A stretch of 64,000 nt of DNA, taken from assembly GCF_963924675.1 (NCBI RefSeq), contig NW_027077394.1, positions 310,001 through 374,000 on the forward strand, given 5' to 3'. Shown here piece by piece: positions 969 through 44,359 of the stretch. The stretch is from Phocoena phocoena (lineage: Eukaryota > Chordata > Mammalia > Artiodactyla > Phocoenidae). Within the stretch, counting starts at the first letter, position 1, and each line of letters starts with the position of its first letter. The position numbers were made by a program, and so were the translations under genes. Below the pieces are notes generated by a model. That model saw only the letters and a list, made by a program, of their open reading frames with translations, was not told where the DNA came from and did not search any database.

Positions 969-2643
969 GTGCATCATTGTCGACGTTCTGCCTCTTTTCC
1001 TATGCTTTCAGGGCAATTCCAGTCTACCCCCTGCAATCGTTTTCCTGAAATTCTGCCCCGCTTTCAAGTCCCCTTCGCAGGCTTTCTTCAATATACTTTT
1101 GGAAGATAGCTGTCATTTATAACTCTGCAGGTTTGTGAATTACAGTGCCCCTGAGCTCCTTTCTTCAACTCGCTTTCTTGTGAGCTGGGCACAAAACCGC
1201 AGGATTGCTTCAGGCCCTAATCTGTTTCCAGCAGGGCACGCTGAGCCTTTGGTTAATTCCTCTTCCTGGTGGGAAATGAGCGTTACACTTGCCCGTGCAG
1301 ACACCTACAGCTAGTCTCTCATTGGTTCTCCCTATTCCTGTTCGTCTTGCACAGAAATTGCAAGCTGTGCCAAAGAGGAGATTAAAGGCACTGACTCTCC
1401 AATTGAGGAGAGTGTTAGTAAAGCATTTGGAATGGTGAACCCGAGGACCAGGATACGAAAATTGACATGCATTTTAAATCGTTTTCCAATCACACGGTGG
1501 ACGATACTCTGGGTTTCCCATGAATGTTTTAGCTGGAGGAAGAATCCCTTGAACCTGGAGAGTTGGGACCCATGGAATGGGTACCATGTAGTATGACTTC
1601 AAAGGGTCTGCATTTGCTCACCGAAACTCACCAATGCTATCAGCCTGAAGTGTCCAGCCTTATGTCTCAACCAGCTCTGGGTGTAGATGTGGTCAATCCC
1701 CGTTGCATCACATGCTCTGAGTGAATTATTTAAGAATTGCTCTCTATTTCACTGTCTTTGTGTTTTGTTTTCGAAATTTATTTGGATAATTGGATTTATC
1801 GGATTTTCACTGCTGCGTTTCGGCCGTTGTACACACGCTCGATTCTCTTATGGAGACATATATATCCATGGGTTTTAAGATTCTTCCTAGTCAGGTATAT
1901 TCCTAGGCGTTGAATATGTGGTGTTGGGTCCATTTCGTTGAGCAAGGGGTAGCTCTTTTCTATTACATATTTGGCTTATGGAAAGTTATCTGTGCTAATT
2001 CCAGTCTCTGGTTTTATGCAGCACCCCAACGCACCTTTCCCCATAAGCAAGCACTAGTTGGTTTTCTAAATTTGAGACCCTGTTCTGTTTTGTAATTCAG
2101 TTCATGTGTAGTCAAGTTTACATTCCGTGTATTAGTGATATCTTATGATGTTTCTTTTTCCGTGTGACATATTTCACGTAGAATCACCATACCTGCATAC
2201 ATTCACTATGCCACTATGGGCCTGATGACACAGATTTCATTGATGAGTGATATTGCATTGTACGTACGTGCCACAACTTCTTTATCCATTTTTTGCTTTC
2301 TAGGATATTTACCTGATACTGTAGACGAGCTTCTTGTGAACACAGCCGTCCCAAATATTGGGGTGGCTGTCTGTTTTTGATTTTAATTTCTGTAAGCTAT
2401 AGGACCATAAGTGGAAGTGCCATAGGCTGTGTTGCTTTGTTTCTTATGTGTTTCAGGAAACACCATACACTTCTCCAGGGTGGCTGCTGGCAATTTACAT
2501 CCTGCCAATCAGCATAACAAGGCTCCCTGTTTTCCATATCCTGTCCTACCTTTCTGGATTTTACGCTTTTTTCAGATGGCCCTTTTGCCTGGGGGGCAGT
2601 GAGACTTCATTGTAGTGCAGATTTCCTTTACAGGCTTGCTTGG
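897..2643. repeat. Satellite unit, 1,747 bp
   Basis: Full-length unit counted from palindrome to palindrome. It is almost identical to 61,827-63,573. The L1-like part is subtype beta (CTATAGGACCATAAGTGGAA). From about 2,218 onward its right-hand part also matches 23,944 onward, which marks the left edge of the duplicated module. Confidence 0.85.
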
Positions 2644-4392
2644 TTGGCCAAAAAGGGCGTATGCGTTTTTTCCTGAATATATTCAGGAAAAAACGCATAC
2701 GCCCTTTTTGGCCAAGTGTATCATTGTTGTCGTTGTGCCTCTTTTCCTATGATTTCAGGGCAATTCCAGTCTACCCCCTGCAATCGTTTTCCTGAAATTC
2801 TGCCCCGCTTTCAAGTCCCCTTCGCAGGCTTACTTCAATATATTTTTGGAGGATAGCTGTCATTTATAACTCTGCAGGTTTGTGAATTACAGTGCCCCTG
2901 AGCTCCTTTCTTCAACTCGCTTTCTTGTGAGCTGGGCACAAAACCGCAGGATTGCTTCAGGCCTTAATCTGTTTCCGGCAGGGCACGCTGAGCCTTTGGT
3001 TAATTCCTCTTCCTGGTGGGCAATGAGCGTTACATTTGCCCGTGCAGACACCTATAGCTAGTCTCTCATTGGTTCTCTCTATTCCTGTTCATCTTGCACA
3101 GAAATTGCAAGCTGTGCCAAAGAGGAGGTTAAAGGCACTGACTCTCCAAGCGGGGAGAGTGTTAGTAAAGCATCTGGAATGGTGAACCCGAGGACCAGGA
3201 TACGAAAACTGAGATGCATTTTAAATCGTTTCCCAATCACACGGTTGACGATACTCTGGGTTTCCGATGCATGTTTTAGCTGGAGGAAGAATCCCTTGAA
3301 CCTGGAGAGTTGGGATCCATGGAATGGGTACCATGCAGTATGACTTCAAAGGGTCTGCATTTGCTCACCGAAACTCACCAATGCTATCAGCCTGAATTGT
3401 CCAGCCTTATGTCTCAACCAGCTCTGGGTGTAGATGTGTTAAATCCCGGTTGCATCACATGCCCTGAGTGAATTATTTAAGAATTGCTCTCTATTTCACT
3501 GTCTTTGTGTTTTCTTTTCGAAATTTATTTTGATAATGGGGATTATCGGATTTTCACTGATGCGTTTATGCCACTGTACACTGGCTTGATTCTCTTACGG
3601 AGACATATAAATCCATGGGTTTTAAGATTCTACCTAGTCAGGTATATTCTTAGGCGTTGAATATGTGGTGTTGAGTCCATTTCGTTGAGCAAAGAGTAGG
3701 TCTTGTCTATTACATATTTGGCTTATGGAATGTTATCTGTGCTAATTTCAGTCTCTGTTTTTATGCAGCACCACAACGCACCTTTCCCCATAAGCAAGCA
3801 CAAGTTGGTTTTCTAAATTTGCGACCCTGTTCTGTTTTGTAATTCAGTTCATGTGTAGTCAAGTTTACATTCCGTGTATTAGTGATATCTTATGATGTTT
3901 CTTTTTCTGTGTGACGTAGTTCACGTAGAATCACCGTACCTGCATCCACTCACTTTGCCGCTACGGGCCTGATGACACAGATTTCATTGCTGAGTGATAT
4001 TCCTTTGTACGTACCTACCACAAACTCTTTATACAGTTTTTGCCTTCTGCAATATTTACCTGGTAGTGTAGACGAGCTTCTTGTGAACACAGCCGTACCA
4101 AACTTTGTGGTGGCTGTCTGTTTTTGATTTTAATTTCCCTAATCTATAGGACCATAATTGGAAGTGTCATAGGCTGTGTTGCTTTGTTTCTTACGTTTTT
4201 CAGGAAACACCATACACTTCTCCAGGGTGGCTGTTGGAAATTTACATCCTGCCAATCAGCATAACAAGGCTCCCTGTTCTCAATGTCCTGTCCTGCCTTT
4301 CTGGATTTTACACTTTTATCAGGTGGCCCTTTTGCCAGGTAGGGGCAGTGAGACTGCATTTTAGTGCAGATTTCCTTTATAGGCTTGCTTGT
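2644..4392. repeat. Satellite unit, 1,749 bp
   Basis: Nearly identical to 24,370-26,118. Its L1-like part carries a third variant (CTATAGGACCATAATTGGAA), found only in this unit and its duplicate. Confidence 0.85.
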
Positions 4393-6130
4393 TTGACACA
4401 AAAGGGCGTATGCATTTTTTCCTGAATATATTCAGGAAAAAACGCATACGCCCTTTTTGGCCAAGTGCATCATTGTCCACGTTCTGCCTCTTTTCCTGTG
4501 CTTTAAGGGCAATTCCAGTCTACCCCCTGCAATCGTTTTCCTGAAATTCTGCCCCGCTTTCAAGTCCTCTTCGCAGCCTTAGTTCAGTATATTTTTGGAC
4601 GATAGCTTTCATTTATAACTCTGAACGTTTGTGTATGACAGTGCCCCTCAGCTACTTTTTTCAACCCCCCTTCTTGTGAGCTGGGCACAAAACCGCAGTA
4701 TTGCTTCAGGCCCCAATCTGTTTCGGGCAGGGCACTCTGATCCTTTGGCTAATTCCTCTTCCTGGTGGGAAATGAGTGTTACATTTGCCCATGCAGACAG
4801 CTACTGCTTGTCTCTCATTGTTTCTCCCTATTCCTATTCATCTTTTGAAGAAATTGTGAAATATGCCAAACAGGAGTTTAAGCGCACTGTCTCTCCAAGT
4901 GGGCAGAGTGTTAGTAAAGCATCTGGAATGGTGAACCTGTGGACCAGGATACGAAAACTGAGATGCATTTTTAATCGTTTCCCAATCACATGGTGGACCA
5001 TACTCTGGGTTTCCCAATCATGCTGTAGCTGAATAAAGAATCCCTTGAACCTGGAGAGTTGGGACCCATGGAATGGGTACCATGCAGTATAACTTCAAAG
5101 GGTCTGCATTTGCTCACAGAAACTCACCAATGCTATCAGCCCCATGTGTCCAGCCTTATGTCTCACCCAGATCTGGGTGTTGATGTGGTAAATCCAGGTT
5201 GCATCACAAGCCCTGAATGAATTATTTAAGAATTGCTCTCTATTTCACTTTCATTGTGTTTTGTTTTTGTAGTTTATTTTGATAACAGTATTTATCGGAT
5301 TTTCACTGCTTCGTTTATGCCGCTGTACACACGCTTGATTCTCTTATGGAGACATATAAGTTCATGGGTTTTAAGATTCTTACTAATCAGGTATATTCCT
5401 AGGCATTGAATATCGCGTGTTGAGTCCATTTCGTTGAGCAAGGAGTAGGCCTTGACTATTACATATTTGGCTTATGGAACGGTATCTGTGCTAATTTCAA
5501 TCTCTGGTTTTATGCAGCACCCCAACTCACCTTTCCCCTTAAGGAAGCATAAGTTGGTTTTCTTAATTTGAAACCCTCTTCTCTTTTGTAATTCAGTTCA
5601 TATGTAGCCATGTTAACATTCCATGTATTAGTAATATCTTATGTCTTTTTCTTTTTGAATTATATGACATCGAATGATCACACGTAACTCCTCTGGAGTT
5701 GTTACAACTGGCCGTATTTCATTGATTTCCAGGCTGAGTAATATTCCACTCTACATAAGCACCACATCTCTATCCATTTTTTCTCTGCAGAAACATTTAA
5801 GTTATATACTAGTCGAGGATCTTTTAAACAGAGAGGTGGTAAACATTGGGGTGCCTGTGTCCTCTCGATTTTTGTTTTTCCCAAGATATACTTCCATGAG
5901 TGCAAGTGCCCTGTGCTCGGTAGCTCATTTTTTAGATGCTTTAGTAAACACAATAGACTTATCCAGAGTGACCGTTGGCAATATACATTTCCACTATAAG
6001 TCTCACAGGGCTCCCTTTTCTCCTTGCCCTGTCCTGCATTTCTGGTGTTTACACTTTATGAGGACGGCTCTTCTGACTGATGCAAAGTGATATGTTTTGT
6101 AGAATTGATTTCCAGTGCCCACCTGTTTTG
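4393..6130. repeat. Diverged satellite unit, 1,738 bp
   Basis: The left palindrome arm is damaged (TTGACACAAAAGGGCG instead of TTGGCCAAAAAGGGCG). From about 5,650 the sequence is strongly diverged, but the minus-strand translation at 5,702-5,953 still carries the L1 ORF2-like stretch KKWIEMW...VEYYSAWKS. Duplicate at 26,119-27,856. Confidence 0.75.
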
Positions 6131-6836
6131 TTGGCTAAAAAAGTGTATGCCCTTTTCTTGAATATATACAGAAAAAGACGCATACACCCTTTTTGGCCAA
6201 CTGCAATGTTGGCAATGTTCAGCCCCTTTTCTTGTGCTTAATGGCGAGTCCTTTCTACCTCTTCCAATCCCTTTCCTGCCATTCTCCGTTGCTTACAAGT
6301 CCTTTTCTCTGACTTTCCTCAAGACATTTTTCAGTGATAGATATTTTCAACTCTGCAGTTTCGTGAATTTTAGTGCCCCTGAGTTCCATTTTCCAACTTG
6401 TGTTTATGGGAACCGGCCACAAAGCATCAGGATTCCTCAAGCCCTATTCTGTTTCCATGGGCAACCCTAGCCTTTGGTCAATTCGTCTTCCTGATTGGAA
6501 ATTAGAGTGACATGTGCCTGTCCGAACACCTAGGACTTGTCTCTCATTGTTCCTCCTCCTTCCGCTTCATCCTCTGCACAAATTCCATACTGTATGCAAC
6601 AGGATGTTGACAGTGCTGACATCTCCAAGTGGGGAGACTCTTAGTAAAGACGCTGGAGTGGTGAACCCTAGCACCAAGAGATGAGGAGATGAGATGCCTT
6701 TTCCAAACTTTTCCCGATCAGACCGTATACCATTCTCTGGGTGTGACAGGTATGTTTTAGGTGTAGGAAGGGTCCCATTCATGTGAGGAGAACACCAGGG
6801 GATTTTCAATATCAGTGTCTCTCCGCAACCCAAACT
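6131..6836. repeat. Degenerate satellite unit, partial (array edge)
   Basis: A 70-bp imperfect palindrome at 6,131-6,200 is followed by recognisable but degraded satellite landmarks: a GTGAATTTTAGTGCCCCTGAG block, CCAAGTGGGGAGA, and GGTATGTTTTAGGTG. The satellite match fades between about 6,780 and 6,840. Duplicate at 27,857-28,562. Confidence 0.65.
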
Positions 6837-6989
6837 GGGGAATTTTTTAAGCTACGGCTACACACATGTTCATTAAGGGCCTTGGGAAGTAGGCAGAGTC
6901 CAAACTTTAGATGATTGAAGTCTTCAGGGTCAGAAGCACTCACCACTGTCTTCCCTTAGGTTCCATTTTTACTGTCATTGATGGATGAT
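6837..6989. other. Captured island, left edge: no recognisable feature
   Basis: Ordinary AT-rich mammalian sequence between the last degraded satellite and an L1 scrap. I see no coding or repeat signature. Duplicate at 28,563-28,715. Confidence 0.4.
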
Positions 6990-7180
6990 GTCAATAAAAA
7001 TATCTATTCTTTTTCAGATCATTTCCCCTTATAGGTTATTGCAAAATATTGAGTGTAGTTCCCTGTGCTATACAGTAGTTCCTTGCTGATGATTTCATAC
7101 ATAGCAGTGTGTATGTGTTAATCCCAAACTGTTAATTTATCCCTCCTCCTACCATTTCCCTTTGTTAATAATAAATTATA
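6990..7180 (-). mobile_element. Old L1 3' fragment, antisense
   Basis: The phrases GTTATTGCAAAATATTGAGT, GTTCCCTGTGCTATACAGTA, GTGTGTATGTGTTAATCCCA and AATTTATCCCTCCTCC match a widespread mammalian L1 3'-region text that I know in this order. It is diverged and bounded by unrelated sequence. Family assignment is from memory. Duplicate at 28,716-28,906. Confidence 0.55.
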
Positions 7181-7226
7181 AGATTTTATGCTTCTCAGAA
7201 ATGGGGGAGCTGAAAGAGAGGTATCA

Positions 7227-7250
7227 TTTTAAATGCAAAAGCATTTAAAA
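7227..7250. repeat. Small perfect hairpin (10-bp arms, 4-base loop)
   Basis: TTTTAAATGC, AAAA, GCATTTAAAA. It lies in otherwise featureless sequence, and its AT-rich arms make chance plausible. Duplicate at 28,953-28,976. Confidence 0.6.
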
Positions 7251-8459
7251 CAAGATTGAAGCTTTAACCAAGATTATTAGATGTACATCCTTGGAAAGAA
7301 GTCACTTTGTTTCTCTAATATTGACCTGACAAAGAAGACAGACCTTTTCACTGAACTTGCTTATAATAAAGTAATGGAAATATCAAATGGAAGTGTTCGA
7401 AACATCTTATTTTACCCGAGCCTTATACACTGTTCTATGTTAATTACAGTTTGGCTCACACATCTGTTCATTGAAGTTACAATGTTCTCAATTTCTGTTA
7501 CTGATCCTCCAGAGTGGACGCCAACAAGTGTCCCCCTGCCCAGTGTCATTGGAGCCAATAGATCGAGACTGAGTTTGGTTCAAAAGCAAAGGAAACTTTA
7601 TATTTTGATCAGAGAATGGAGAGGTGCTACCCTGTGGGCTGTGGGCTGGGCTGCTGTGTAGAGATCCTGTCAGAGTCACTGGGAGGGAGGGGGCTGAGCT
7701 CTCGAGGACCTGGTTGGCTGCAGCTCAGGCTCTATGTCACGGAGTCTGAACTGGGCTCCAGGAGCTGAAGTGTCATCGAGCCATTCTGCTCTAGGAAATC
7801 TGGTCTGAAGTGCCGGGTGTGGAACCTCTGTATGCGAGACCCTAGGAGCACCTGAAATTAGACAAAGCACAAAGGATAAAAAAGGTTAGACTTTATTTTA
7901 TTGCCCAGATTCTATTTTTATCTCCCAGGCATTTTTAAGGGGCTTTGCCTGGGACAAACTCCTCTTCTGCCTTTTGTCCCTTTCCTCATTCTTGGAGTGC
8001 TGCGGGTGCAGACCCTTCTTCTCTAACTGCTGAGTGCTGAGTTAGGAGGCCTCATACCCGTGGGCGAGGGTCAGAACTTCTCCCCAGCAGCCTCCAGGTG
8101 ACGTTGATTGTCCCCAGGCCTCCTGCCTCCCTGCTCGTCCGCCTGAGCACCAGTATTGGAAGTGTTATAGATTCTAATGACCTTTAAGGGTCCAGAAAGG
8201 AGATGTGCAGTGGCGCTGTGAGGTCCAGTTTCACCCCGCCCCACATTTGTTCAGCCACCTTAGGCTGACCATTTCTGCCAGCCTAGATGCTCTGACTGAC
8301 CGTTTCTGCCAGCCTAGATGCTCTGACCAACAGTCTGTGCTTTCTTCCATTAGGCCCCTGAATTAACGTAAAAACAGCACCAGGTGTCAGGACCCTGCCC
8401 GCTCAGCTCCCAGACAGTCCAGGGTTAGTGGTGATGAAGGATCATGATGGTCACTGAGT
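7251..8459. other. Captured island, middle: unassigned sequence
   Basis: No satellite, no recognised L1 and no convincing long reading frame. The base composition shifts from AT-rich (to about 7,600) to GC-richer (7,680-8,150). The longest plus-strand frame (7,281-7,661) shows no motif that I recognise, and a stretch of that length without stops is expected by chance. The right part could belong to the 3' portion of the ERV whose pol lies at 8,460-9,785 on the minus strand, but I see no LTR ends. Duplicate at 28,977-30,185. Confidence 0.35.
8265..8326. repeat. Tandem 31-bp duplication
   Basis: A 31-bp segment starting CTGACCATTTCTGCCAGCC is followed directly by a second copy with one substitution (CTGACCGTTTC). 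Duplicate at 29,991-30,052. Confidence 0.85.
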
Positions 8460-9785
8460 CAAGAGCCTTTGGAAGTAAACAGGAGTCCAGCCAGTCTTAT
8501 TGGCCACCATCATCAGGGTGTCTGTAGGCTTTTCTATGGTGACAGCATGATATACGGTTCCCCCGCCAAGATTATTAGCTCCCCTCTGGGTACAGTAAGT
8601 ACTGCAAGCAGTAGTCTACTCTTTTGGGACACACTCTTGTTGTTTTATGAGAGAAACTCCAGGTCAAGTGATGGTCACACGGGTCGTCATGGTGCCCCGT
8701 TGCCCCCGGTTATCTCTCTGGAGGTTGGAGTTGGAGGGCCTCCTCAATCGAGGTCAGTGTGCCCACGGAGCAAACCCTGCAACTTCAGGGCATGGTTGGG
8801 GGTTAGGATCACCACGTGGGGTCCGTTTCCCTTAGAAGGGAGGTGGCCTTTTGGGCTGCTGATTTCCAGGTTTTCAGATACCACCAGTATCTTGGCCAGT
8901 TATGGCAGTGGGCCAAGCCCGTTGGTGACCATAGTTTATCCTACCTGGATGGCATTCTTGCATTGTTCCATTTCAAGTGGTCCCAGTTTTTGCACTAATG
9001 CTCCAATGGCGATTCACCTTTCACCAGGAATGTAAAGGTCAAAGGGTTTAGCTAAATTAGGGAGTTCCAGGGCAAGGGTCTGAATTGACTGCTCTTTCCA
9101 TTCTTGAAAGGCCACTTCTGGATTCTATTCAAAAGGATCATCATCTTTTCCTTTCAGTGTTTCATATAGAGGCCCAGCTAGTAGACTGTAGTTAGGGATC
9201 CAGAGGCAGGAAACCCTGGCTTCCCCAGGAACCCCTAAGCTGTCTTCTAGTTTCAGAAAGGGGTAAGGCTATAAATTGTTTCTTCCCTTTCCTGGGATGG
9301 GCTTCTCCGACCTTCTGTGAGAATGAAGCCCAGGCAGGTCACCGTAGTCTGTGATATTTGAGCTTTTTCGTGGACAACTTCTATCCTTTATTGGCTTGGT
9401 AGTTCTGAGGCCTCCTTAGTAGGGCTGGCGATCAGAATGTTGTCTGAATATTGAAGGAGTGTTTCCTTTTCCAGAGGTAGAAGTTTTAGGTCTTTAGCTG
9501 AGCTTTCCCCAAAGATGGTGTGGGAATTTTTGAACCCTTGGGGCAAGACAGCCTGGAAGTATTGTTTTAGTTGTATGTTGAGTCCTGTCACTGACAAGCC
9601 AAAATTTCTTGTGACTCTGGGACTAATGGAATACAAAAGAAGGCATCATTGAAGAGTAATACAGAATACCAAGTCCTGGTGGTTGGTAGAATGACCAGCA
9701 GGGTGTAGGATTTAGGAACTACTGGAGGTATATCCTCAGTGGCTTCACTGACTGTCCTGACATCCTTTACCAGGACTCCAGCAGC
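8460..9785 (-). pseudogene. Broken endogenous retrovirus pol fragment (gammaretrovirus-like RT and downstream region)
   Basis: Read on the minus strand from about 9,785 down, successive short frames resemble class I (gammaretrovirus-like) reverse transcriptase. They include EDIPPVVPKSYTLL, then DAFFCIPLVPESQ near 9,650 (the A-motif region), VLPQGFKNS, and LLQYSDNILIA in place of the usual YxDD catalytic box. Further down, near 8,940-9,110, ALELPNLAKPFDLYIP and GALVQKLGP match the connection region after RT. The frame changes between the A motif and LPQG. In-frame stops follow, for example after DDPFE near 9,115 and just after the stretch ending at 9,388. The second catalytic aspartate is replaced (YSDN). 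No gag, env or LTR was recognised. The copy is dead and antisense to the window. It is the most gene-like piece in the captured island. Duplicate at 30,186-31,511. Confidence 0.8.
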
Positions 9786-9983
9786 CCATGGGGCTCTCGA
9801 GGTCAGGCCAATCCCAGGATATGGAGCTCACCTGGGCAGGTACCCTACCCCCACCCCAGCCCACGGGGCTCTCGTGTTCAGGCCCCTCCCAGGATATGGG
9901 ATTCCCTGGGCAGGTCCTCTGCAGTCCATGGGGCTCCCGTGGTCAGGCCCCTCCCAGGATACAGAGCTACCCTTGCAGGTACC
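9785..9983. repeat. Three-copy minisatellite (65-75 bp)
   Basis: Copies start at 9,785, 9,860 and 9,925. Each runs CC(A/C)TGGGGCTC.CG.GGTCAGGCC, then TCCCAGGATA, and ends in a GCAGGT-like phrase. A C-rich filler lengthens the first interval. The long plus-strand frame across 9,739-10,299 arises from this repeat and is not a credible gene. Duplicate at 31,511-31,709. Confidence 0.75.
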
Positions 9984-10430
9984 TTGGCAGGGCTGGGCAC
10001 ACAGTAACCGTGCACATAGCCCTCATTGCAGAGCACTCCCAGCTCACCTGTCGCTCAGATCTGACACAGAGCACCTCAGAGCAGGACTTGAACTAACAAA
10101 CAGCAGCTCTGACAGGTCTGTGACCCTGGGCATCACTCTGTGCGGCCTCCTCCACCTGGTCTTCCAGAGACTTCCACTGCACCCGGGGCACCAGGCCTCT
10201 GTCTCCAACCACCACCCACCCCTCCTCTCCCTGACTCCTGGGTTCCTCTCATTAGGAGAGGGTTTTCTTGAAGTTGTCTCCCACTCATGGGCCAGATAAT
10301 ATAATTAGAAAACAAGCCAGAGCTGCAGCCCCTTGTCTATCCTGACTCTCAGGAGCCCACACCTGTTCCTTGGACCTGGCCAATTCAGCAAGTTCCATTT
10401 TCTGCAACTGTGAGCCCCTGAGGGGTGATT
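9984..10430. other. Captured island: unassigned GC-rich sequence
   Basis: Unique-looking sequence with no repeat or motif that I recognise. It leads into the promoter-like stretch to its right. Duplicate at 31,710-32,156. Confidence 0.35.
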
Positions 10431-10734
10431 ATTGGCTGGCCTGGGAAGCCTGACCGTGCCGGCCAGCCCTCCCCAGGTGTGCCTGGGTTGAGATCAATAT
10501 AAACACCGCTCCAGGCAGCAAGAGCCCCTGCAGCTGTGCCTGACGCCATTTTCTCTGCCCTGTCAGCAGTCTCGGGGCTGGGCTGGTGGGAGGGAGTGAG
10601 AGGCCACGGCTTTGTGGGTGTCCCAGTGTGAGTGGGGCTCTGCTGGACTTTCTGCAGCAGTTGCCAAGATGCTACCTGCTAAAGAAGAGGATGTGTCACC
10701 CACACCTGCTGCTGGAATTTCTCCCTGGGCACAG
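10431..10734 (+). promoter_or_regulatory. Promoter/first-exon-like stretch (candidate)
   Basis: An inverted CCAAT box (ATTGGCTGG, 10,431) lies about 67 bp before a TATA-like box (TATAAA, 10,498-10,503), the usual spacing for a TATA promoter. Downstream, an ATG at 10,669 has A at -3 and opens 22 codons that run in phase into CAG|GTGAGG, a good splice-donor match, at 10,735. I recognise neither the peptide nor a second exon. Alternatives are a captured 5' end of a host gene, part of an ERV LTR, or chance. Duplicate at 32,157-32,460, also intact. Confidence 0.25.
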
Positions 10735-11287
10735 GTGAGGAAGGAAGAAAGCAGTGGGGGCCGGGACAGCAGGGGTATCTCAGGCAGGGAAATGGAGAGC
10801 TTCCAGAAGAGCACCCAGGGCCAGGACCATCCTGGCTGGCCTGCAGGCACCAAGTCGGCTGGCATGCTGTCCCTCATGTGGCTCCATGGCCCTTCCTCTA
10901 GGTTTTCAAGTCCTTGTACATATTCAGGTGTTTAGCCTTGGAAGGGTGGGGACATTTCAGCAGCAGCTGGCCTGGGGCTCGGCCCACGTTTACTCACAGA
11001 TACCTCGGCACGGTCCCCCAGCTTTGCAGTGAGGACGCTTGTTGCGAGGAGCATGCTGGCTGAATGGGAGATGATTCCCCACCACTGACCAACTTCAGAA
11101 TTGTTTGCAATTGGAGCAAGTGCCCTGAAACGGTTTTCCTCTGTGTAACTGGTGGGTTCTGTTCTTTTTTATCTTTTTTTCGTTTTTGGTTCAAGGTAGA
11201 TTTTATTCCTCTTTTGTGTATTTACAGATATAAGCATGGAAATAATTTATTCATATAAATACATGTATGTGAAGGGAAGAATATTTT
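10735..11287. other. Captured island, right edge: unassigned
   Basis: GC-rich to about 11,050, then T-rich. The frames here (both strands at 10,563-11,258) overlap one another without any recognised motif, and I do not call them genes. Duplicate at 32,461-33,013. Confidence 0.35.
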
Positions 11288-12003
11288 CTCTGTTTTACTT
11301 TTTTTAATTTTATTTTTTTATTTTGAATTTAATTTTATATTTTTATACAGCAGGGTTTTTGGTTATCTACTTTATACATATAAATGTATGCATACCAATC
11401 CCAATATCTCAACTCCTCCCACCACCAACAGCTTTCCCCCCTTGTTGTCCATACGTTTGTTGTATACATGTGTTGCTCTATTTCTGCCTTGCAAAACGGT
11501 TCATCTGTACAATTTTTCTAGGTTCCACATATATGCATTAATATACAAGATTTGTTTTTCTCTTTCTGACTTACTTCACTCTGTATGACTTTCTCTAGAT
11601 CCATCAACGTCTCTACAAATGTCCCAATTTCATTCCTTTTTATGGCTTAGTAATATTCCATTTTATATATGTACCACATCTTTATGCATTCGTCTGTCTG
11701 TGGGCATTTAGGTTGCTTCCATTACCTGGATAGTGTAAATAGTGATGCAATGAATATTGTGGTGAATGTCTCTTTTTGATTTATGGTTTTGTCTGGGTAT
11801 ATGCCCAGTAGAGGGATTGCTGTATCATATGGTAATTCTATTCTTAGTTTTATAAGAAACTCCATAATGTTCTCCACAGTGACTGTATCAATTTACATTC
11901 CCAACAATAGTGGAAGAGGATTCCTTATCTCCACACCATTTCCAGCATTTGTTGTTTGTAGATTTTCTGATGATGCCCATTCTAATAGGTGTGAGGTGAT
12001 ACA
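11288..12003 (-). mobile_element. Truncated L1, antisense, between unique sequence and satellite
   Basis: The plus strand reads as the antisense 3' end of a cetartiodactyl-type L1: T-rich tract, TATACAGCAGGGTTTTTGG, CCATACGTTTGTTGTATAC, GGTTCCACATATATGCATTA, TTTCTGACTTACTTCACTC, TTTAGGTTGCTTCCATTACC, GGGTATATGCCCAGTAGAGG and GATTTTCTGATGATGCCCAT, ending at GTGAGGTGATAC. That is about 0.7 kb of 3' UTR and ORF2 C-terminus, and the element is 5'-truncated. Satellite resumes immediately (GAGTCTATTTCGTTGAGC). The A-rich 3' end faces the captured island on the left. I found no clear target-site duplication. It is dead. Duplicate at 33,014-33,736, with a 6-bp insertion in the CCACC tract. Confidence 0.85.
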
Positions 12004-33736: not shown

Positions 33737-34864
33737 CCATGGATGAGTCTATTTCGTTGAGCAAAGAGTAGGTCTTGTTTATTACGTATTTGGCTTATGG
33801 AATGGTATGTGTGCTAATTTCAATCTGTTTTTATACAGCAGCCCAACTCAACTTTCCCCTTAAGCAAGCATAAGGTTTTTATCTAAATGTGAGACTCTGT
33901 TCGGTTTTGTAATTCAGTTTATGTGTAGCCAAGTTTACACTCCCTCTATTAGTGATATCTTATGATAATTATCTTTCTTTGTGTGACATATTTCTCTTAG
34001 AATCATCATAATTAAATCCACTCAATTTGCTGCTACAGGCCTGATGACATTGATTTCACTGCTGAGTGATATTCCGTTGTACGTAAGTAGCACAACTTCT
34101 TTATCCATTTTTTTCTTTCTGGGATATTTAATTTGTACTGGACTCGAGGTTCTTGTAAACACAGCAGCCCTAAATTTTGTGTTGGCTGTGTCTTGTTGAT
34201 TTTAATTTTCCTAAGCTATAGGGCCAAAAGTGGAAGTGCCCTAGGCTCTGTAGCTTTGTTTTTTAGATGTTTCAGGATACACCATGAACATCTCCAGAGT
34301 GTCTGTTGGCAATTTACATCCCGCCCATCAGCATAACACGGCTCCCTGTTCTCCATGGCCTGTCCTGTGTTTCTGGTTTTTACACTTTATTCAGATGGCC
34401 TTTTTGACGAATGGGAAATGTGACTTCATTGTAGTGTGGATTTCCATTGCTGGAGTGCTTGGTTGGCCAAAATGTTCATATGCGTTTTTTCCTGAATATA
34501 TTCAGGAAAAATGTATACGCACTTTTTGTCCATGTGCATCACTGTCAAAGATCTGCCGCTTTTCATATGCTTTAAATGCAATTCCAATCTACCTCTTGAA
34601 ATATGATTCCTGCAATTCTGCCTCGTTTTCAAGTCCTCTTTGCAGACTTACTTCGATATATTTTTGCCAATAGCTGTCATTTATCTCTGCAGGTTTGTGA
34701 ATTACAGTGCCCTTGAGCTCCTTTCTTAACTCGCTTCCTTGTAAGCTGGCCACAGAACTGCAGGTTTGCTTCAGGTCATAATCAGGGTCCGGCACGGCAC
34801 TCTGAGCTTTTGGTTAATTCCTCTTCCTGGTGGGAAATTAGAGTTAAATGTGCCCCTCCAGATA
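33737..34864. repeat. Diverged satellite segment (copy B)
   Basis: Counterpart of 12,004-13,131, with the imperfect palindrome at 34,463-34,533. Confidence 0.8.
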
Positions 34865-37800
34865 CCTGCCTCACTCCCAGCCACATGGTGATGTGTGTCC
34901 TCAGGTTTGAGGCCATATGTGATGGGTTCCTCATCTTTTGATGATGTGGCCCCACTGGTGTGTGCACACTCCTGCCTGGTTCCCATCCCCTTGGTGATGT
35001 GGGCCCTCTGGTGAGACTCTGATCCTGGTTGGGTTCCTCACACATCCGTGAGGTGAGCCCTCTTCTCTGAGGTCACTCCTGCCTGGCTGGCACAACCCGC
35101 CTTGTGGACTTCGGCACCCTGGTGGCAGTTGGAGCCTGCTGGGAGCCTCCTTCCCTCGGTGATGAGGCCCTCTGGCGTCAGACCCTAATGGCGGGGTTCC
35201 CACATTTTCTGATACGAGCTAAGTGGTGCGAGAGCACTCCTGCCAGGTTCCCATCCTCATGAGCGTGTGGGCCTTCTGTTCTGAGGTCCTAACGGCTGGG
35301 TTGCTCACACTTTCATGATGTGGGCCCTCTGCTGTGAGGTCAATCCTGCCTGGCTGGCGCACGTCGCCTTGGCGACGTGGACCCTCTGGTGGCAGTTGGA
35401 GCGTGCTGGGGCCTCCTCCCCTCAGTGATGAGGGCCTTCTGGTGTCAGGCCCTAAGTGCTGGGCTCCACACATTTTCTGATGTGTGCCCAGTGGTGCGAG
35501 TCACTCCTGCCAGGTTCCCATCCCCATGGGCATGTGGGACTTCTGTTCTGTGGTCCCAACTGCTGGGTTGCTCACAGTTTCATGATGTGGGCCCTTTGCT
35601 GTGTGTTCACTCTGGCCTGTATCCCATAGTGTCAGTGCTCTGGGCCTCCAGCTTGGAGTTTCCAACTTCTCGATTCCTCACCTTTTTTATTCTATGGGCC
35701 CTCGGTTGTGCGTCTCCTCCTGCATGCCTCACTCCCAGCCCCTTCGTGATGTGTGTCCCCTTGTTTGAGGCCACATGTGCTGTGTTCCTCACCTTTCTAT
35801 AATGTGGCCACACTGGTGTGAGGACACTCTTGCCTGGTTCCCATTCCCTTGGTGATGTTGGCCCCACTGCTGTTAGGACAGTCTTGCCTGGTTCCCATCA
35901 CCTTGTTAATGTTGGCCCTCTGGTGAGAGTCTGATCCTGGTTAGGTTCCTCACCCTTCTGTGAGGTGGGCCCTCTGCTCTGAGGTCACTCCTGCCTGGCT
36001 GGCACACCCCGCCTTGGCAACGTCGGCCATATGGTGGCAGTTGGAGCCTGCTGGGAGCCTCCTCCCCTCGGTGATGAGGGCCCTCTGGCCTCAGGCCCTA
36101 ACTGCTGGGTTCCCACATTTTCTGATTCGTGCTAAGTGGTGCAAGGACACTCCTGCCAGGTTCCCATCCCCATGGGGATGTGAGCCTTCTGCTCTGAGGT
36201 CCCAACGGCTGTGTTGCTCACAGTTTCATGATGAGGGCCCTCTGGTGTGAGTTCACTCCTGCCTAGATCCCATAGCCTCGCTGCTCCTGGCTGCCTGCCG
36301 GAGGTTCCAACTGTGGGATTCCTCACCTTTTTTATTCTATGGTCCCTCTGTTTTGAGGATCCTCTGGCCTACCTCACTCCCAGCCCCTTGGTGATGTGTG
36401 TCCTCAGGTTTGAGGCCACGTGTGCTGGGTCCCTCAAATTATGGTGATGTAGCCCCACTGGTGTGAGGACACTCCTGCCTGGTTCCCATTCCCTTGGTGA
36501 TGTTGGCCCTCTGGTGACAGTCTGATCCTTGTTGGGTTCCTCACACTTCTGTGAGGTGGGCTTTCTGCTCTGAGGTCACTCCTGCCTGGTTGGCACACCC
36601 CGCCTTGGTGACATCGGCCTTATGGTGGCAGTTGGAGCCTGCTGGGAGCCTCCTCCCCTCGGTGATGAGGGTCCTCTGGCCTCAGGTCCTAACTGCTGGG
36701 TTCCCACATTTTCTGATTCGTGGAAGTGGGCCGAGGACACTCCTGTCAGGTTCCCATCCCCATAGGGATGTGGGCCTTCTGCTCTGAGGTCCCATCCGCC
36801 GGGTTGCTCACAGTTTCATCATGTGGGACCTCTGCTGTGAGTTTGCTGTGGCCTGGATCCCATAGACTCTGTGCTCTGGGCGGCCTACTGGCCGGTTCCA
36901 ACTGCTGGATTCCTCACAACTTTTATTCTGTGGGCTCTGTTTTGTGAGGATACTCCTGCTTGCCTCACTCCTAGCCCCTTGGAGATGTGGGTCCCCTGTT
37001 TTAGGCCACATGTTCTGGGTTCCTCACCTTTCTATAATGTGGCCACACTGGTGTGAGGACCCTCCTGCCTGGTTCCGATCCCCTTGGTGATGTGGGCCCT
37101 CTGGTGAGAGTCTTATCCTGGCTGGTTTCCTCACCCTTCTGTGAGGTAGGCCCTCTGCGGTGAGGTCACTCCTGCCTGGCTGGCACACATCACCTTGGTG
37201 ATGTGGGCCCTCAGTTGGGAGTTGGTGTCTGCTGCGAGTCTCCGTCCCTCGGTAATGAGGGCCCTCTTGCGTCAGACCCTAACTCCTGGGCTCCCAAAAT
37301 TTGCAGATGTGCGACCTGTGGTGCGAGTACACTCCTGTCAGGTTCCCAACCGCATGGGAATTTGGGCCTTCTGCTCTGAGGTCCCAACGGCTGGGGTGCT
37401 CACAGTTTCATGATGAGGGCCCTCTGATGTGCGTTCATTCCGGCCTAGATCCCATAGGCTTGCTGCTCCTGGGCGCCTGCTGGGAGGTTCCAACTGCGGG
37501 ATTCCTCACCTTTTTTATTCTATGGGCCCTCTGTTTTGAGGTTCCTCCTGCCTGCCTCAATCCCAGCCCCGTTGTGATGTGTGTCCTCTGGTGTGAGGCC
37601 ACGTGTGCTGGGTCCCTCACCTTTCGATGATGTGGCCCCAATGGTGTGAGGACACTCGTGCCTGTTTCCCAGCCCCTTGGTGATGTGGCCCCTCTGGTGA
37701 GAGTCTGATCCTGGCTGGGTTCCTTACCGTTCTGTGAGGTGGGCCCTGTGCTCTGAGGTAACTCCTGCCTGGCTTGCTCCCATTGCCTTGGTGACGTCGG

Positions 37801-40226
37801 CCCTCTGGTGGCAGTTAGATCCTTTTGGAGACTCCTGTCCTCGGTGATGAGGTCCCTCTGGCGTCAGGCTCTAACTGCTGGGCTCCCCAGGTTTTCTGAT
37901 GTGAGCCCAGTGATGCCAGGACACTCGTGAAATGTTCCCATCCCCATGGCGATATGGGCCTTCTGCTCTGAGGTTCCAACGACTGGGTTGCTCACAGTTT
38001 CCTGATGTTAGCTCTATGGTGTTAGTTCACTCATTCCTAGATCCCATAGCCTCTGTACTCTGGGCCGCCTGCTGGGAAGTTCCAACTGCTGGGTTCCTCA
38101 CCTTTTTTATTCTTTGGGCCCTGTGTTGGGAGGCTCCTCCTGCCTGTGTCACTCCCAGCCCCTTGGTGATGTAGGTCCTCTGGTTTGTGGCCACATGTGC
38201 CAGTTTCCTCATCTTTTAGTGATGTGGCCCCACTGGTGTGAGGACACTCGTGCCTGGTTCCCGTCCCCTTGGTGATATGGGCCCTCTGGTGAGAGTCTGA
38301 TCCTGGTTGGGTTCCTCACACTTCTTTGAGGTGGGCCGTCTGCTGTGAGGTCACTCCTGCCTGGCTGGCACACCCCGCCTTGGCGACGTGGGCCCTCTTG
38401 TGGTAGTTGGAACATGCTGGGAGCCTCCTCCCCTCAGTGATGAGGGCCCTCTGGCGTCAGGCCCTAACTGCTGGGTACCCACATTTTCTGATATGTGCTA
38501 AGTGGTGCGAGGACACTCCTGCCATGCTCCCAACACCTTGGGGATGTGGACCTTCTGCTCTGAGGTCCAAATGGCTGGGTTGCTCGCAGTTTCATGATGT
38601 GGACCCTCTGCTGTGAGTTTACTGCGGCCTGAATCGCATAGACTTGGTGCTCTTGGCCGCCTGCTGGGAGGTTCCCATTGCTGGATTCCTCAGCTTTTTT
38701 ATTCTATGGGCCCTGTGTTGTGAGGCTACTCCTGCCTGCCTCATTCCGAGCCCCTTGGAGATGTGGGTCTTCTTGTTTAGGCCACATGTGCTGGGTTCCT
38801 CACCTTTCTATGATGTGGCCACACTGGTGTGAAGACTCTCCTGCCTGGTTCTGATCACCTTGGTGATGTGGGCCCTCTGGTGAGAGTCTTATCCTGGCTG
38901 TGTTCCTCACCCTTCTGTGAGGTAGGCCCTCTGCGGTGAGGTCACTCCTACCTGGCTGTCACACGTCACCTTGGCGACGTGGGACCTCAGTTGGGTGTTG
39001 GTGCCTGATTGGAGTCTCCTCCCCTTGGTAATGAGGGCCCTCTGGCGTCAGGCCCTAACTCCTGGGTTCCCTAAATTCTCTGCTGTGTGCCCTGTGGTGC
39101 GAGTACACTTCTGACAGGTTCCCAACCCCATGGGAATGTGGGCCTTCTGCTCTGAGATCCCAACGCCTAGGTTGCTCACAGTTTCATGATGACGGCCCTC
39201 TGGTGTGAGATCACTCCGGCCTGGATCCCATAGTCTCGCTGCTCCTGGCCGCCTGCTGGGAGGTTCCAACTGCGGGATTCTTCACCTCTTTAATTCTATG
39301 GTCCCTCTGTTTTGAGGCTCCTCCTGCCTGCCTCAATCCCAGCTCCCTTGTGATGTGTGTCCTCTGGTTTGAGGCCACGTGTGCTGGGTCCCTCACTTTT
39401 CGGTGATGTGGCCCCACTAGTGTGAGGACACTCCTGCCTGGTTCTCATTCCCTTGGTGATGTGGGCCCTCTGGTGAGAATCTGATCCTCTTTGGTTCTTC
39501 ACACTTCTGTGAGGTTGACCCTCTGCTCTGAGGTCACTCCTGCCTGGTTGTCGCACTCTGCATTGGCGACGTCGCCCCTCTGGTAGCAGTCGGAGCTGGC
39601 TGGGAGCCACCGCCCCTCGGTGATGAGGGCCCTCTGGCATCAGGCACTAATTGCTGGGCTCCCGACATTTTTTCATGTGTGTCCACTCTTGCGATGACAC
39701 TCCTACTTGTTTCCCTTCCCCATGGGGATGTGGGCCTTCTGCTCTGAGGTCACAACGGCTGGGTTGCTTACAGAATCACAATGAGGGCCCTCTGTTGTGA
39801 GTTCATGCCGGCCTGGATCTCATAGCCTCAGTGCTCTGGGCCGCCTGCTAGGAAGATCCAACTGCTGGTTTCCACACCTTTTGTATACAATGGGACATGT
39901 GTTGTGAGGTTAATCCTGCCTGCCTCACTCCGAAACCCATGGTGATGTGGGTCCTCTGGTTTGAGGCCACATGTGCTGGGTACCTCAACTTTTGATGATG
40001 TGGCCCCACGGGTGTGAGGACACTCCTGCCTGGTTCCCATCACCTTGGTGATGTGGGCCCTCTGGGGAGAGTCTGATCCTGGCTGGGTTCCCTACCATTC
40101 TGTGAGGTGGGCCCTCTGATGTCAGGTCACTCCTGCCTGGCTAGCTCACATCGCCTTGGCGACGTGGGCCCTCTGTTGGCCACTGGAGCATGCTGGGAGC
40201 CTCCTACTCCCGTGAATGATGGCCCT
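34865..40226. repeat. 592-bp / 11-mer satellite (copy B)
   Basis: Same order and number of higher-order units as copy A, including the 910-bp irregular first interval. It differs by about 1% by eye, clearly more than the island to its left. Its two junctions with the main satellite are the same as in copy A. Confidence 0.88.
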
Positions 40227-40587
40227 GGAAAAAATGCATATGCCCTTTTTGGCCAAGTGCTTCATTGACGAGGTTCTGCCACTTCTCTTATGCTTTCAGA
40301 GCAATTCACGTCTACCTCCTGAAATCGGATTCCAGCAATTCTGCCCCACTTTCAAGTCCTCTTCGCAGCCTTAATTCAATATATTTTTGTACGATTTCTG
40401 TCATTTATAAGTCTGCAGGTATGTGAATGTCAGTGCCCCTGAGATCCTTTCCTCAACTCGCTTTCTTGTGAGCTAGCCACAAAACCGCAGGATTGCTTCA
40501 GGCCCTAATCTTGTTCCAGCACGGCATGCTGAGCCTTTGGTTAATTCCTTTTCCTGTTGGGAAATGAGTGTTAAAATTGCCCGTGCA
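40227..40587. repeat. Satellite from palindrome right half to L1 insertion (copy B)
   Basis: Counterpart of 18,493-18,853. Unusually diverged from it: eight substitutions in roughly 210 bp by eye (for example CTAGCC versus CTGGCC, GAGATCC versus GAGCTCC). Confidence 0.85.
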
Positions 40588-41259
40588 TACTGGGCATATA
40601 CCCTGAGAAAACCAAAATTCAAAAAGAGTCATGTACCAAAATGTTCATTGCAGCTCTATTTACAATAGCCCGGAGATGGAAAGAACCTAAGCGCCCATCA
40701 TCGGACGAATGGATAAAGAAGATGTGGCACATATACACAATGGAATATTACTCAGCCTTAAAAAGAAATGAAACTGAGTTATTTGTAATGAGATGGATAG
40801 ACCTAGAGTCTGTCATACAGAGTGAAGTAAGTCAGAAAGAAAAAGACAAATAGCGTATGCTAACACATATATATGGAATTTAAAGGAAAAAATTGTCATG
40901 AAGAACCTAGGGATAAGACAGGAATAGAGGCGCAGACCTACTGGAGAACGGAATTGAGGATATGGGGAGGGGGAATGGTGAGTTCTGACAGGGCGAGAGA
41001 GAGTCATGGACATATACACACTAACAAATGTAGTAAGGTAGATAGCAAGGGGGAAGCAGCCGCAAGGCACAGGGATATTAGCTCGGGGCATTGGGACAGC
41101 CTGGAGGGGTGGAAGGGGGAGAGAGGGAGGGAGGGAGACACAAGAGGGAAGACACAGGGAGCATATGTATATGTATAGCTGATTCACTTTGTTATAAAGC
41201 AAAAACTAACACACCATTGTAAAGCAATTATACCCCAATAAAGATGTTAAAAAAAATAT
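40588..41259 (+). mobile_element. 5'-truncated L1 with target-site duplication (copy B)
   Basis: Same truncation point, A-tail and TTGCCCGTGCA duplication (40,577-40,587 and 41,260-41,270) as the copy at 18,854-19,525. It holds the ORF2p C-terminal remnant at 40,641-40,853. Confidence 0.93.
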
Positions 41260-42613
41260 TTGCCCGTGCACACACCTACAGATAGTCTCCCATTGGTTCT
41301 CCGTATTCCTGTTCATCTTGGGCAGAAATTGCAAACAGTGCCAAACAGGAGGTTAAAGGCACTGAGTCTCCAAATGGGGAGAGTGTAAGAAAAGGGTCTG
41401 GAATGGTGAACCTGAGTACCAGGGGACGAAAACAGACATGCATGTAAAAAGGTTTCCCAGTCACACGGTGGAACATACTCTGGGTTTCCCATGCAAATTT
41501 TAGCAGAAGGAAGAATCCCTTGAACCTGGAGAGTTGGGAACCATGGAATGGGTACCAGGCAGTATGACATCAAAGGGTCTGCATTTGCTCACTGAACCTC
41601 ACCAATGCTATCAGCCCAAAGGGTCCAGCCTTATCTCTCACCCAGCTCTGGGTGTAGATGTGGTAAACCAGGTTGCATCACATGCCCTGTGTGAGTTATT
41701 TAAGAATTGCTCTCTATTTCACTATCATTGTGTTTTGTTTTTGAAATTTTTTTTTTGCCACTGGGATTTATCGGATTTTCACTGCTGCGTTAATGCCGCT
41801 GTACACACTCTTGATTCTCTTATGGAGACATAAATATCCACGGGTTTTAAGATTCTTCCTAGTCAGGTATATTCTTAGGCGTTGAATATGTGGTTTTGAG
41901 TCCATTTCGTTGAGCAAGGAGTAGGTCTTGTCTATTACATATTTGGCTTATGGAACGGTATCTGTGCTAATTTCAGTCTCTGGTTTTATGCAGCACTCCA
42001 ACGCACCTTTCTCCATAAGAAAGCACAAGTTGGTTTTCTAAATTTGAGACTGTTCTGTTTTGTAATTCAGTTCATGTGTAGTCAAGTTTACATACTGTGT
42101 ATTAGTGATATTTTATGATGTTTCATTTTATGTGTGACTTATTTCACGTAGAATCACCATACCTGAATCCACTCACTATGCCGCTACGGGCCTGATGACA
42201 CAGATTTCATTGCTGAGTGATATTCCATTGTACGTACGTACCACAACTTCTTTATCCATTGTTTGCTCTCTGAGATATTTACCTGGTACTGTAAACGAGG
42301 TTCTTGTGAACAGAGAGGTCCCAAACTTTGAGGTGGCTGGGTGTTTTTGATTTTAATTTCCCTAAGCTGTAGGACCATAAGTGGAAGTGCCATAGGCTGT
42401 GTTGCTTTGTTTCTTATGTTTTTCAGGAAACACAAAACACTTCTCCAGAATGACTGTCGGCAATTTACATCATATGCATCAGCATAATAAGGATCCCTGT
42501 TTTCCATTGCCTGTCCTCCGTTTCTGGATTTTAAAATTTTTTTAAATGGCCCTTTTGCCCTGGGGGACACTGAGACTTCATTGTAGTGCAGGTTTATTTA
42601 CAAGCTTGCTTGG
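41260..42613. repeat. Satellite, remainder of the L1-interrupted unit (copy B)
   Basis: Counterpart of 19,526-20,878, with several substitutions (for example GCAAATTTTAGC for GCATGTTTTAGC). Confidence 0.85.
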
Positions 42614-44359
42614 TTGGCCAAAAAGTGCGTATGCGTTTTTTCCTGAATATATTTAGGGAAAAAAGCATCCGCACTTTTTGGACAAGTGCATCATTATCGA
42701 TGTTCTGCCTCTTTTCCTATTCTTGAAGTGCAATTCCAGTTTAACCCTTCAATCGTTTTCCTGAATTTCTGCCCCGCTTTCAAGTCCCCTTTGCAGGCTT
42801 ACTTCAATATATTTTTGGAGGATAGCTGTCATGTATAACTCTGCAGGTTTGTGAATTACAGTGCCCCTGAGCTCCTTTCTTCAACTTGCTTTCTTTTGAG
42901 CTGGGCACAAAACCGCAGGATTGCTTCTGGCCCTAATCTGTTTTCAGCAGGGCACGCTGCGCCTTTGTTTAATTCCTCTTCCTGGTCGGCAATGAGCGTT
43001 ACATTTTCCCGTGCAGACACCTACAGCTAGTCTCTCATTGGTTCTCCCAATTCCTGTTCATCTTGCACAGAAATTGCAAGCTGTGCCAAACAGGAGTTTA
43101 AAGGCACTGACTCTCCAAGCGGGGAGAGTGTTAGTAAAGCATCTGGAATGGTGAACCTGAGGACCAGGATACGAAAACTGAGATGCATTTTAAATCGTTT
43201 CCCAATCACACGGTGGACGATACTCTGGGTTTCCCATGCATGTTTCAGCTGGAGGAAGAATGCCTTGAACCTGGAGAGTTGGGACCCATGGAATGGGTAC
43301 CATGCAGTATGACTTCAAAGGGTCTGCATTTGCTCACCGAAACTCACCAATGCTATCAGCCTGAAGTGTCCAGCCTTATGTCTCAACCAGCTCTGGGTGT
43401 AGATGTGGTAAATCCCGGTTGCATCACATGCCCTGAGTGAATTATTTAAGAATTGCTCTCTATTTCACTGTCTTTGTGTTTTGTTTTCGAAATTTATTTT
43501 GATAATGGGATTTATCGGATTTTCACTGCTGCGTTTCGGCCGCTGTACACACGCTTGATTCTCTTACGGAGACATATATATCCATGGGTTTTAAGATTCT
43601 TCCTGGTCAGGTATATTCCTAGGCATTGAATATGTGGTGTTGGGTCCATTTCGTTGAGCAAGGAGTAGGTCTTGTCTATTACATATTTGGCTTATGGAAA
43701 GTTATCTGTGCTAATTTCAGTCTCTGGTTTTATGCAGCACCCCAAGGCACCTTTTCCAATAAGCAAGCACTAGTTGGTTTTCTAAATTTGAGACCCTGTT
43801 CTGTTTTGTAATTCAGTTCATGTGTAGTCAAGTTTACATTCCGTGTATTAGTGATACCTTATGATATTTCCTTTTCTGTGTGACATAGTTCACGTAGAAT
43901 CACCGTACCTGCATCCACTCACTATGCCGCTATGGGCCTGATGACACAGATTTCATTGCTGAGTGATATTGCATTGTACGTACGTGCCACAACTTCTTTA
44001 TCCATTTTTTGCTTTCTGGGATATTTACCTGATACTGTAGACGAGCTTCTTGTGAACACAGCCATCCCAAATATTGGGGTGGCTGTCTGTTTTTGATTTT
44101 AATTTCCGTAAGCTATAGGACCATAAGTGGAAGTGCCATAGGCTGTGTTGCTTTGTTTCTTACTTGTTTCAGGAAACACCATACACTTCTCCAGGGTGGC
44201 TGCTGGCAATTTGCATCCTGCCAATCAGCATAACAAGGCTCCCTGTTCTCCATATCCTGTCCTACCTTTCTGGATTTTACACTTTTTTCAGATGGCCCTT
44301 TTGCCCGGAGGGCGTTGAGACTTCATTGTAGTGCAGATTTCCTTTACAGGCTTGCTTGG
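42614..44359. repeat. Satellite unit, 1,746 bp
   Basis: The palindrome is imperfect on the right arm (AGCATCCGCAC). The copy A/B match ends near 42,800 within it. Beta subtype. Confidence 0.85.

What the first reader, a model, noticed from the sequence alone, without database searches (positions are those of the whole stretch)
2218..42800. An 18.8-kb composite module spreads inside the satellite array
Satellite, captured ERV/unique island, antisense L1, a second satellite and an L1-bearing satellite unit recur together at an offset of 21.73 kb, with a third start at 63.15 kb. The array is amplifying blocks that carry non-satellite cargo as well as 1.75-kb units. I do not know this composite as a described repeat.
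Basis: seen in the sequence. Interest (0 to 1): 0.75.

Follow-up and report, generated by a model that had tools for sequence, protein, structure and literature searches.

The report
Cargo block spreading within a satellite
A 12.75-kb block of retroelement debris and a second satellite is caught inside a 1.75-kb L1-derived satellite and sits in more than 1,400 places in this genome assembly, an arrangement that resembles great-ape heterochromatin.

Summary
The window holds two copies of a composite block (2218-21030 and 23944-42766); a third starts at 63148, its island just beyond the window. The non-satellite island (6771-19523) carries a broken antisense retroviral pol, antisense L1, aged satellite, a second 592-bp satellite and a sense L1 with an 11-bp target-site duplication. 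The block is not local: in the 2.51-Gb assembly the satellite/island junction occurs 1,437 times and the L1/satellite junction 1,037 times (controls 0). Junction-to-junction length was 12,724-12,763 bp in 21 pairs. Twenty hand-picked copies on seven large contigs differ by 0.97% on average, and same-contig copies are no more alike than others. Two older copies (about 5% diverged) share the left junction; one lacks the L1, in the other the L1 site was not seen. Best explanation: an island trapped in the satellite long ago, hit once by L1, then multiplied by in-register unequal exchange and moved between chromosomes by ectopic exchange or conversion. Closest known system: great-ape subterminal caps (pCht satellite plus spacers). 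Seven answered paper searches (five with cetacean terms) listed no description. Read depth, other cetaceans, species and allelism with contig C334 remain untested.

The parts
1..6770 (+). Left flank: 1747-bp satellite units ageing toward the island (95.7, 96.0, 92.1, 77.7% to a reference unit); high identity to copy B begins at 2218
6771..19523 (+). Island A, from the satellite/island junction to the L1/satellite junction
   Evidence: junctions counted genome-wide
8440..9720 (-). Broken retroviral pol; RT piece 9391-9645. The wider bounds are judged by eye from short antisense frames
   Evidence: RVT_1 E=1.3e-4, 22.1 bits, below Pfam's curated cut-off of 29.6; MMLV RT entry 1mml E=2.3e-4; frames
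11181..12010 (-). Antisense L1 3' region
   Evidence: L1 ORF2 E=1.6e-8 for 11725-11892
12011..13134 (+). Aged satellite piece (82%) inside the island
   Evidence: its left junction counted 1,372 times
13141..18492 (+). Second satellite, GC-rich, periods about 54, 592 and 1775 bp
18493..18856 (+). Satellite piece (86%), left part of the unit hit by L1
18854..19525 (+). 5'-truncated sense L1 with AATAAA and poly-A; the 11-bp repeat TTGCCCGTGCA lies at 18843-18853 and 19526-19536
   Evidence: ORF2 C-terminus E=5.4e-29; flanks printed; copy without the L1 at C62 edge1
19524..28496 (+). Five satellite units joining block A to block B in unbroken phase (starts 19524, 21268, 23013, 24760, 26509)
28497..41257 (+). 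Island B, same order of parts
41258..64000 (+). Satellite array of 13 unit starts; third block begins at 63148

Best explanation
It is a composite heterochromatic repeat: arrays of an L1-derived 1747-bp satellite punctuated by one recurrent 12.75-kb non-satellite island. Shown: near-constant junctions and length where examined, more than 1,400 junction copies, unbroken satellite phase between islands A and B, island spacings that follow the satellite lattice in part, and an older copy without the L1. Inferred: the island formed once by insertions at an ageing satellite edge; an L1 then landed in one copy; that lineage was multiplied. Local multiplication would be unequal homologous exchange between satellite units on either side of an island, which copies the island together with a whole number of units. 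Spread between chromosomes would be ectopic exchange, conversion or break-induced copying among heterochromatin blocks. The cargo is a passenger, perhaps also a long high-identity substrate that helps exchange.
For: Junction counts 1,437 / 1,372 / 1,037, island 31-mer 1,311, reversed-pattern controls 0. Junction-to-junction distance 12,724-12,763 bp in 21 plus-strand pairs that I picked where both lists held the copy; 12,751 and 12,759 in the window. Plus-strand share of islands 0.408 and of satellite 0.412, so their relative orientation is kept. Satellite phase unbroken from A to B. 84 spacings: Rayleigh R=0.385, p about 4e-6 at 1746.7 bp; the best period, 582 bp (R=0.51), is one third of it and near the 592-bp second satellite. 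Copies on one contig no more alike than on others: 1.09% vs 0.98% shuffled, 20 copies. A and B are mosaic: 7 differences in 6,600 bp left of 13370, 60 in 6,153 right, while A and edge2 differ evenly, 73 and 70 (Fisher p=3.7e-9). Old copy without L1.
Against: Four spacings of 14.95-14.96 kb on C1 are off the 1747-bp lattice. Over all 28 non-edge copies same-contig pairs are closer (0.92% of 25 pairs vs 1.16% of 353), driven at least partly by the window's subfamily. The four-gamete test is weak: 32 incompatible pairs against a simulated mean of 18.9 (maximum 68); 7 homoplasic sites against a mean of 2.2 (maximum 7) in 300 simulations. Transfer between chromosomes is inferred from likeness, and scaffolding of heterochromatin may be wrong. 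No reads were examined.
Confidence: 0.75

Rival explanations
1. Assembly artefact: A and B are two haplotypes of one locus laid in tandem, or a tangle in the repeat graph, so that the local repetition is false.
For: The core of A and B differs by only 0.1%, which heterozygosity could give. C334 holds a pair at nearly the same spacing (21,732 bp). Orientation flips inside several blocks could be scaffold joins.
Against: The junction occurs 1,437 times; the 40 best places lie on 28 contigs. A and B differ by about 1% right of 13370 and by 3% at 19524-21030. C is a third copy whose left flank agrees with A but not with B.
Confidence: 0.08
2. Rolling-circle (extrachromosomal circle) amplification and reinsertion by homology, rather than unequal crossing-over, made and spread the blocks.
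For: It would also give in-phase joins and rapid spread between chromosomes. The run of four steps of 14,949-14,960 bp on C1 looks like one burst.
Against: Elsewhere spacings vary widely (14.9-198 kb, median 40 kb over 84 intervals), not runs of equal steps. Nothing here tests for circles.
Confidence: 0.12
3. The island is a mobile element (a large composite retroelement) that inserts itself into the satellite.
For: It contains pol and L1 sequence.
Against: The pol is broken and antisense to the later L1. Copies share the same satellite junctions, whereas an element would land at many satellite positions. The old isolated copy on C4 brings its satellite flank along.
Confidence: 0.03

Closest known systems
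Great-ape subterminal heterochromatic caps: pCht/StSat satellite with segmental-duplication spacers (PMC12758386: abstract and sections 4, 6 and 8 seen)
   Same: Satellite arrays of variable length interrupted by one recurrent non-satellite spacer; hundreds of copies on many chromosomes; near-identical copies on different chromosomes; older and younger spacer lineages.
   Different: There the unit is 32 bp, spacers are 32-34 kb, number about 413-700 per haplotype, come from euchromatic duplications and sit at chromosome ends. Here the unit is 1747 bp, the island 12.75 kb with more than 1,400 junction copies, it is largely retroelement and satellite debris, and many blocks lie far inside large contigs.
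Common cetacean satellite (Kapitonov et al. 1998; seen only as cited in passages of PMC9659126 and PMC6947457)
   Same: Long unit of about 1.75 kb (length recalled) derived from the L1 3' end; the unit here carries an antisense L1 ORF2 remnant.
   Different: The passages seen describe the satellite alone, without a recurrent island. No deposited satellite sequence was compared.
Composite repeats of telomere-to-telomere ape genomes (PMC11168930, passages; definition recalled)
   Same: A repeating unit made of transposable elements, satellite and other pieces.
   Different: Here the copies are separated by variable numbers of units of another satellite.

Membership tests
Ape-type subterminal cap (satellite plus spacer) | Satellite arrays interrupted by one recurrent non-satellite spacer | tested here: met
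Ape-type subterminal cap (satellite plus spacer) | Near-identical spacers on different chromosomes | tested here: met
   Pairs down to 0.11% between C1 and C4; assumes that large contigs are different chromosomes
Ape-type subterminal cap (satellite plus spacer) | Subterminal position | tested here: not met
   Blocks at C1 121.8-122.6 of 187 Mb, C2 94.3-94.9 of 178, C3 135.6-136.3 of 174, C5 51.1-52.0 of 140; some are terminal (C4 0-1.8 Mb, C1 186.9 of 187.3)
Ape-type subterminal cap (satellite plus spacer) | Spacer derived from a euchromatic segment | tested here: inconclusive
   About 4.4 kb of 6771-11180 is partly unassigned; no source locus found. Isolated old copies on C4 are satellite-linked (L049) or unread (18.78 Mb)
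Ape-type subterminal cap (satellite plus spacer) | Reduced methylation of spacers | not testable with these tools
   Only CpG observed/expected: island 0.22, satellite 0.48, which gives no hint of it
Common cetacean satellite | Tandem unit of about 1.75 kb (recalled) | tested here: met
   1747 bp
Common cetacean satellite | Derived from the L1 3' part | tested here: met
   Antisense frame 20449-20859 matches L1 ORF2 at E=4.2e-5
Common cetacean satellite | Sequence identity to deposited satellite | not tested
   No cetacean reference was available
Local segmental duplication | Copies confined to one locus | tested here: not met
   1,437 places; 28 contigs among the 40 best places

The most novel reading that the evidence does not exclude
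Cetacean and great-ape heterochromatin converged on one architecture: a satellite plus a hyperexpanded non-satellite spacer. The spacer is not mere cargo but the long, high-identity substrate through which chromosomes exchange heterochromatin, and an L1-marked lineage of it replaced older spacers across the chromosome set.
Probability: 0.3. Interest if true: 0.82.

Novelty: new member of a known kind. Interest (0 to 1): 0.62.

Why it matters
It would be an independent mammalian case of spacer-in-satellite heterochromatin, in a group whose karyotype is described as very uniform (PMC10815390, passage). It comes with an order of events readable in the copies (no L1, L1, amplified) and with variants that make exchange between chromosomes countable. 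It also warns that a 12.75-kb sequence that fills about 18 Mb of this assembly can confound alignment, duplication calls and read-depth work.

Tried and rejected
Haplotig or tandem mis-assembly as the whole story: rejected by the genome-wide counts. Island as a mobile element: rejected by shared junctions. Faster mutation of the second satellite as the cause of the uneven A-B identity: rejected, because A and edge2 differ evenly. Higher-order repeat of the 1747-bp unit: not seen; identity is flat near 95.8% over lags 1-10 among 11 units. Rfam search of the window: 0 families at the gathering score. Pfam on 10 chosen frames: 1 match, RVT_1, below its curated cut-off. Satellite 28-mer in IMG/VR viral contigs: 0 matches. 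Count of the second satellite genome-wide: the same request was sent seven times and never answered, so whether that satellite also exists on its own is unknown.

Full report
WHAT IS THERE. The window is C62:310001-374000 (+) of a 2,512,610,734-base assembly in 439 contigs. Self-comparison finds one long collinear match, 1-28496 with 21728-50245. In 500-bp steps identity is 94.4-97.8% up to 2500 and then 98.4-100% to 19.5 kb. The mismatch list puts the left edge after 2217, and 2218-19523 holds 79 mismatches. From 19524 to 21030 the two copies share an aged unit (49 mismatches in 1,507 bp) whose pieces match other units at 86.5-94.7% at best. After that only array background remains. Copy C starts at 63148 and its island is at C62:377680.

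ANATOMY. The array is a 1747-bp satellite. The last units before the island are aged (92.1% and 77.7%) and break off at 6770. The island then holds, in order: mixed sequence with broken antisense pol (RVT_1 E=1.3e-4, below the curated cut-off; an entry named MMLV reverse transcriptase at E=2.3e-4 and other RTs); antisense L1 to 12010 (ORF2 E=1.6e-8); an 82% satellite piece, 12011-13134; the second satellite, 13141-18492, with periods of about 54, 592 and 1775 bp; an 86% satellite piece; and a sense L1 (ORF2 C-terminus E=5.4e-29) with poly-A, flanked by TTGCCCGTGCA on both sides. The unit itself carries an antisense L1 ORF2 remnant (E=4.2e-5), as reported for the common cetacean satellite (Kapitonov 1998, seen only as cited in passages of PMC9659126, and PMC6947457).

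GENOME-WIDE. Left junction 44-mer (up to 3 mismatches): 1,437 places. Right junction 50-mer (up to 3): 1,037. Internal junction 46-mer (up to 3): 1,372. Island 31-mer (exact): 1,311. Satellite 28-mer (exact): 45,495. Reversed-pattern control: 0 for each of the five. Counts are whole; the printed lists stop at 100 places. The 1 kb piece 7000-8000 had 1,140 first-look candidates; the 40 scored lie on 28 contigs at 99-100%. By arithmetic this is about 79.5 Mb of satellite and 18.3 Mb of island, 3.9% of the assembly, with about 32 units per island. These are assembly counts, and the satellite 28-mer was chosen because it was found 76 times in about 80 units examined. The plus-strand share is 0.408 for left junctions and 0.412 for satellite (chi-square p=0.80).

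HISTORY. I fetched 200 kb of the 755 kb of C62 outside the window. From its left end: about 38.5 kb of TTAGGG-derived satellite; then common satellite with an old module, edge1, whose island pieces are 92.3% and 94.9% like the window's and whose satellite runs on where the L1 should be; then a module, edge2, at 98.8% with the L1. A second old copy lies apart from the block on C4, at 36.58 Mb: 4.98% from the window and 4.30% from edge1, with the same left junction. Its L1 site lies outside the 9.9 kb fetched. So the junction is older than the L1, and the L1 is older than the main amplification. With a recalled rate of 0.5-1e-9 per site per year, 5% is some 25-50 million years and 0.1-1% some 0.5-10 million; these dates are inference.

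SPREAD. I picked 20 copies on C1, C2, C3, C4, C5, C7 and C12 by hand from the list (at most 1 mismatch to the junction pattern, so biased toward the common form) and compared 1.77 kb of island. Mean difference is 0.97%, range 0.11-2.38%. Same-contig pairs average 1.09%, shuffled labels 0.98%; 95% of 5,000 shuffles were at or below the observed value. Against this, over all 28 non-edge copies same-contig pairs are somewhat closer (0.92%, 25 pairs, against 1.16%, 353 pairs); that set includes the window's own subfamily, taken from the best-40 list and so chosen for likeness. Members of that subfamily (C62, C118, C264, C304, C334) differ from copy B by 0.06% or less in that piece. Copies A and B differ at 7 sites in 6,600 left of 13370 and at 60 in 6,153 right of it, while A and edge2 differ at 73 and 70 (Fisher p=3.7e-9). 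One duplication event with even mutation would not give that, so copies have been recombined or converted. The four-gamete test points the same way but is weak: 7 homoplasic sites among 23 non-CpG sites against a simulated mean of 2.2 and maximum of 7; incompatible pairs are not unusual (32 against a mean of 18.9, maximum 68; 300 simulations).

MECHANISM. Of the 100 places listed I used 97 (3 on C6 left out). Of their 91 intervals I dropped 7 with a strand change or over 300 kb, leaving 84. They run from 14,949 to 198,050 bp, median 39,966; some must skip copies that lack the exact 31-mer. They cluster on the satellite period (R=0.385 at 1746.7 bp), and more strongly on 582 bp (R=0.51; the 95% point of 200 randomised sets is 0.32), as expected if whole satellite units and whole 592-bp units of the second satellite come and go. 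Four steps of 14.95-14.96 kb on C1 do not fit the 1747-bp lattice and may be a separate burst. The satellite is in phase across the A-B join. This is what unequal homologous exchange between satellite units gives. Transfer between chromosomes is inferred from likeness, not observed.

COMPARISON. Great-ape caps (PMC12758386: outline with abstract, sections 4, 6 and 8) work alike: about 413-700 spacers per haplotype, 32-34 kb, proposed to drive ectopic exchange. The present family fails the subterminal-location test, so I do not file it as that system, only as one that works like it. Seven paper searches were answered, five of them with cetacean or whale terms; their listings showed no description of such an island in a cetacean satellite. 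The library lacks most subscription papers, so this is weak evidence of novelty. The blue whale paper (PMC10919930, 12 of 19 passages) reports a recent burst of segmental duplications; none of the passages seen names this repeat. Passages of PMC10815390, PMC5615363 and PMC10153287 do not mention it either.

LIMITS. No reads, no other cetacean genome and no species name. The count of the second satellite did not complete. C334 holds two copies 21,732 bp apart with a left flank like copies A and C and a middle piece closer to A (6 differences) than to B (16).

Noticed in passing
G000:C62:1-38500 (L009-L012): Satellite built of degenerate TTAGGG repeats (periods 162, 168 and 330 bp), CpG observed/expected 1.56, directly abutting the common satellite array at about 38.56 kb.
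   Followed up: partly
G000:C62:118026-122772 (L020-L021): A lone retroviral insertion of about 4.7 kb in an ordinary satellite unit, whose satellite flanks overlap by 8 positions as in a target-site duplication. Not studied further.
   Followed up: no
C1 122.22-122.34 Mb, C2 94.76-94.78, C3 135.83-136.09, C5 51.51-51.61, C7 19.47-19.58, C12 72.23-72.33: Island orientation flips once inside each of these blocks; on C1 the satellite flips too. Either scaffold joins or real inverted arrays.
   Followed up: no
G000:C1:122120021-122179849: Five islands in four steps of 14,949-14,960 bp, off the 1747-bp lattice: a local burst of one short block.
   Followed up: partly
G000:C4:36582028 (L049) and C4:18780051: Isolated copies far from the C4 block at 0-1.8 Mb. 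The first is old (about 5% diverged) and keeps the satellite/island junction; the second was seen only as an internal-junction match.
   Followed up: partly
window 8265-8327: A 31-bp sequence is present twice in the island; edge1, L049, C1 186.86 Mb and C2 94.33 Mb align as if with a different number of copies there.
   Followed up: no
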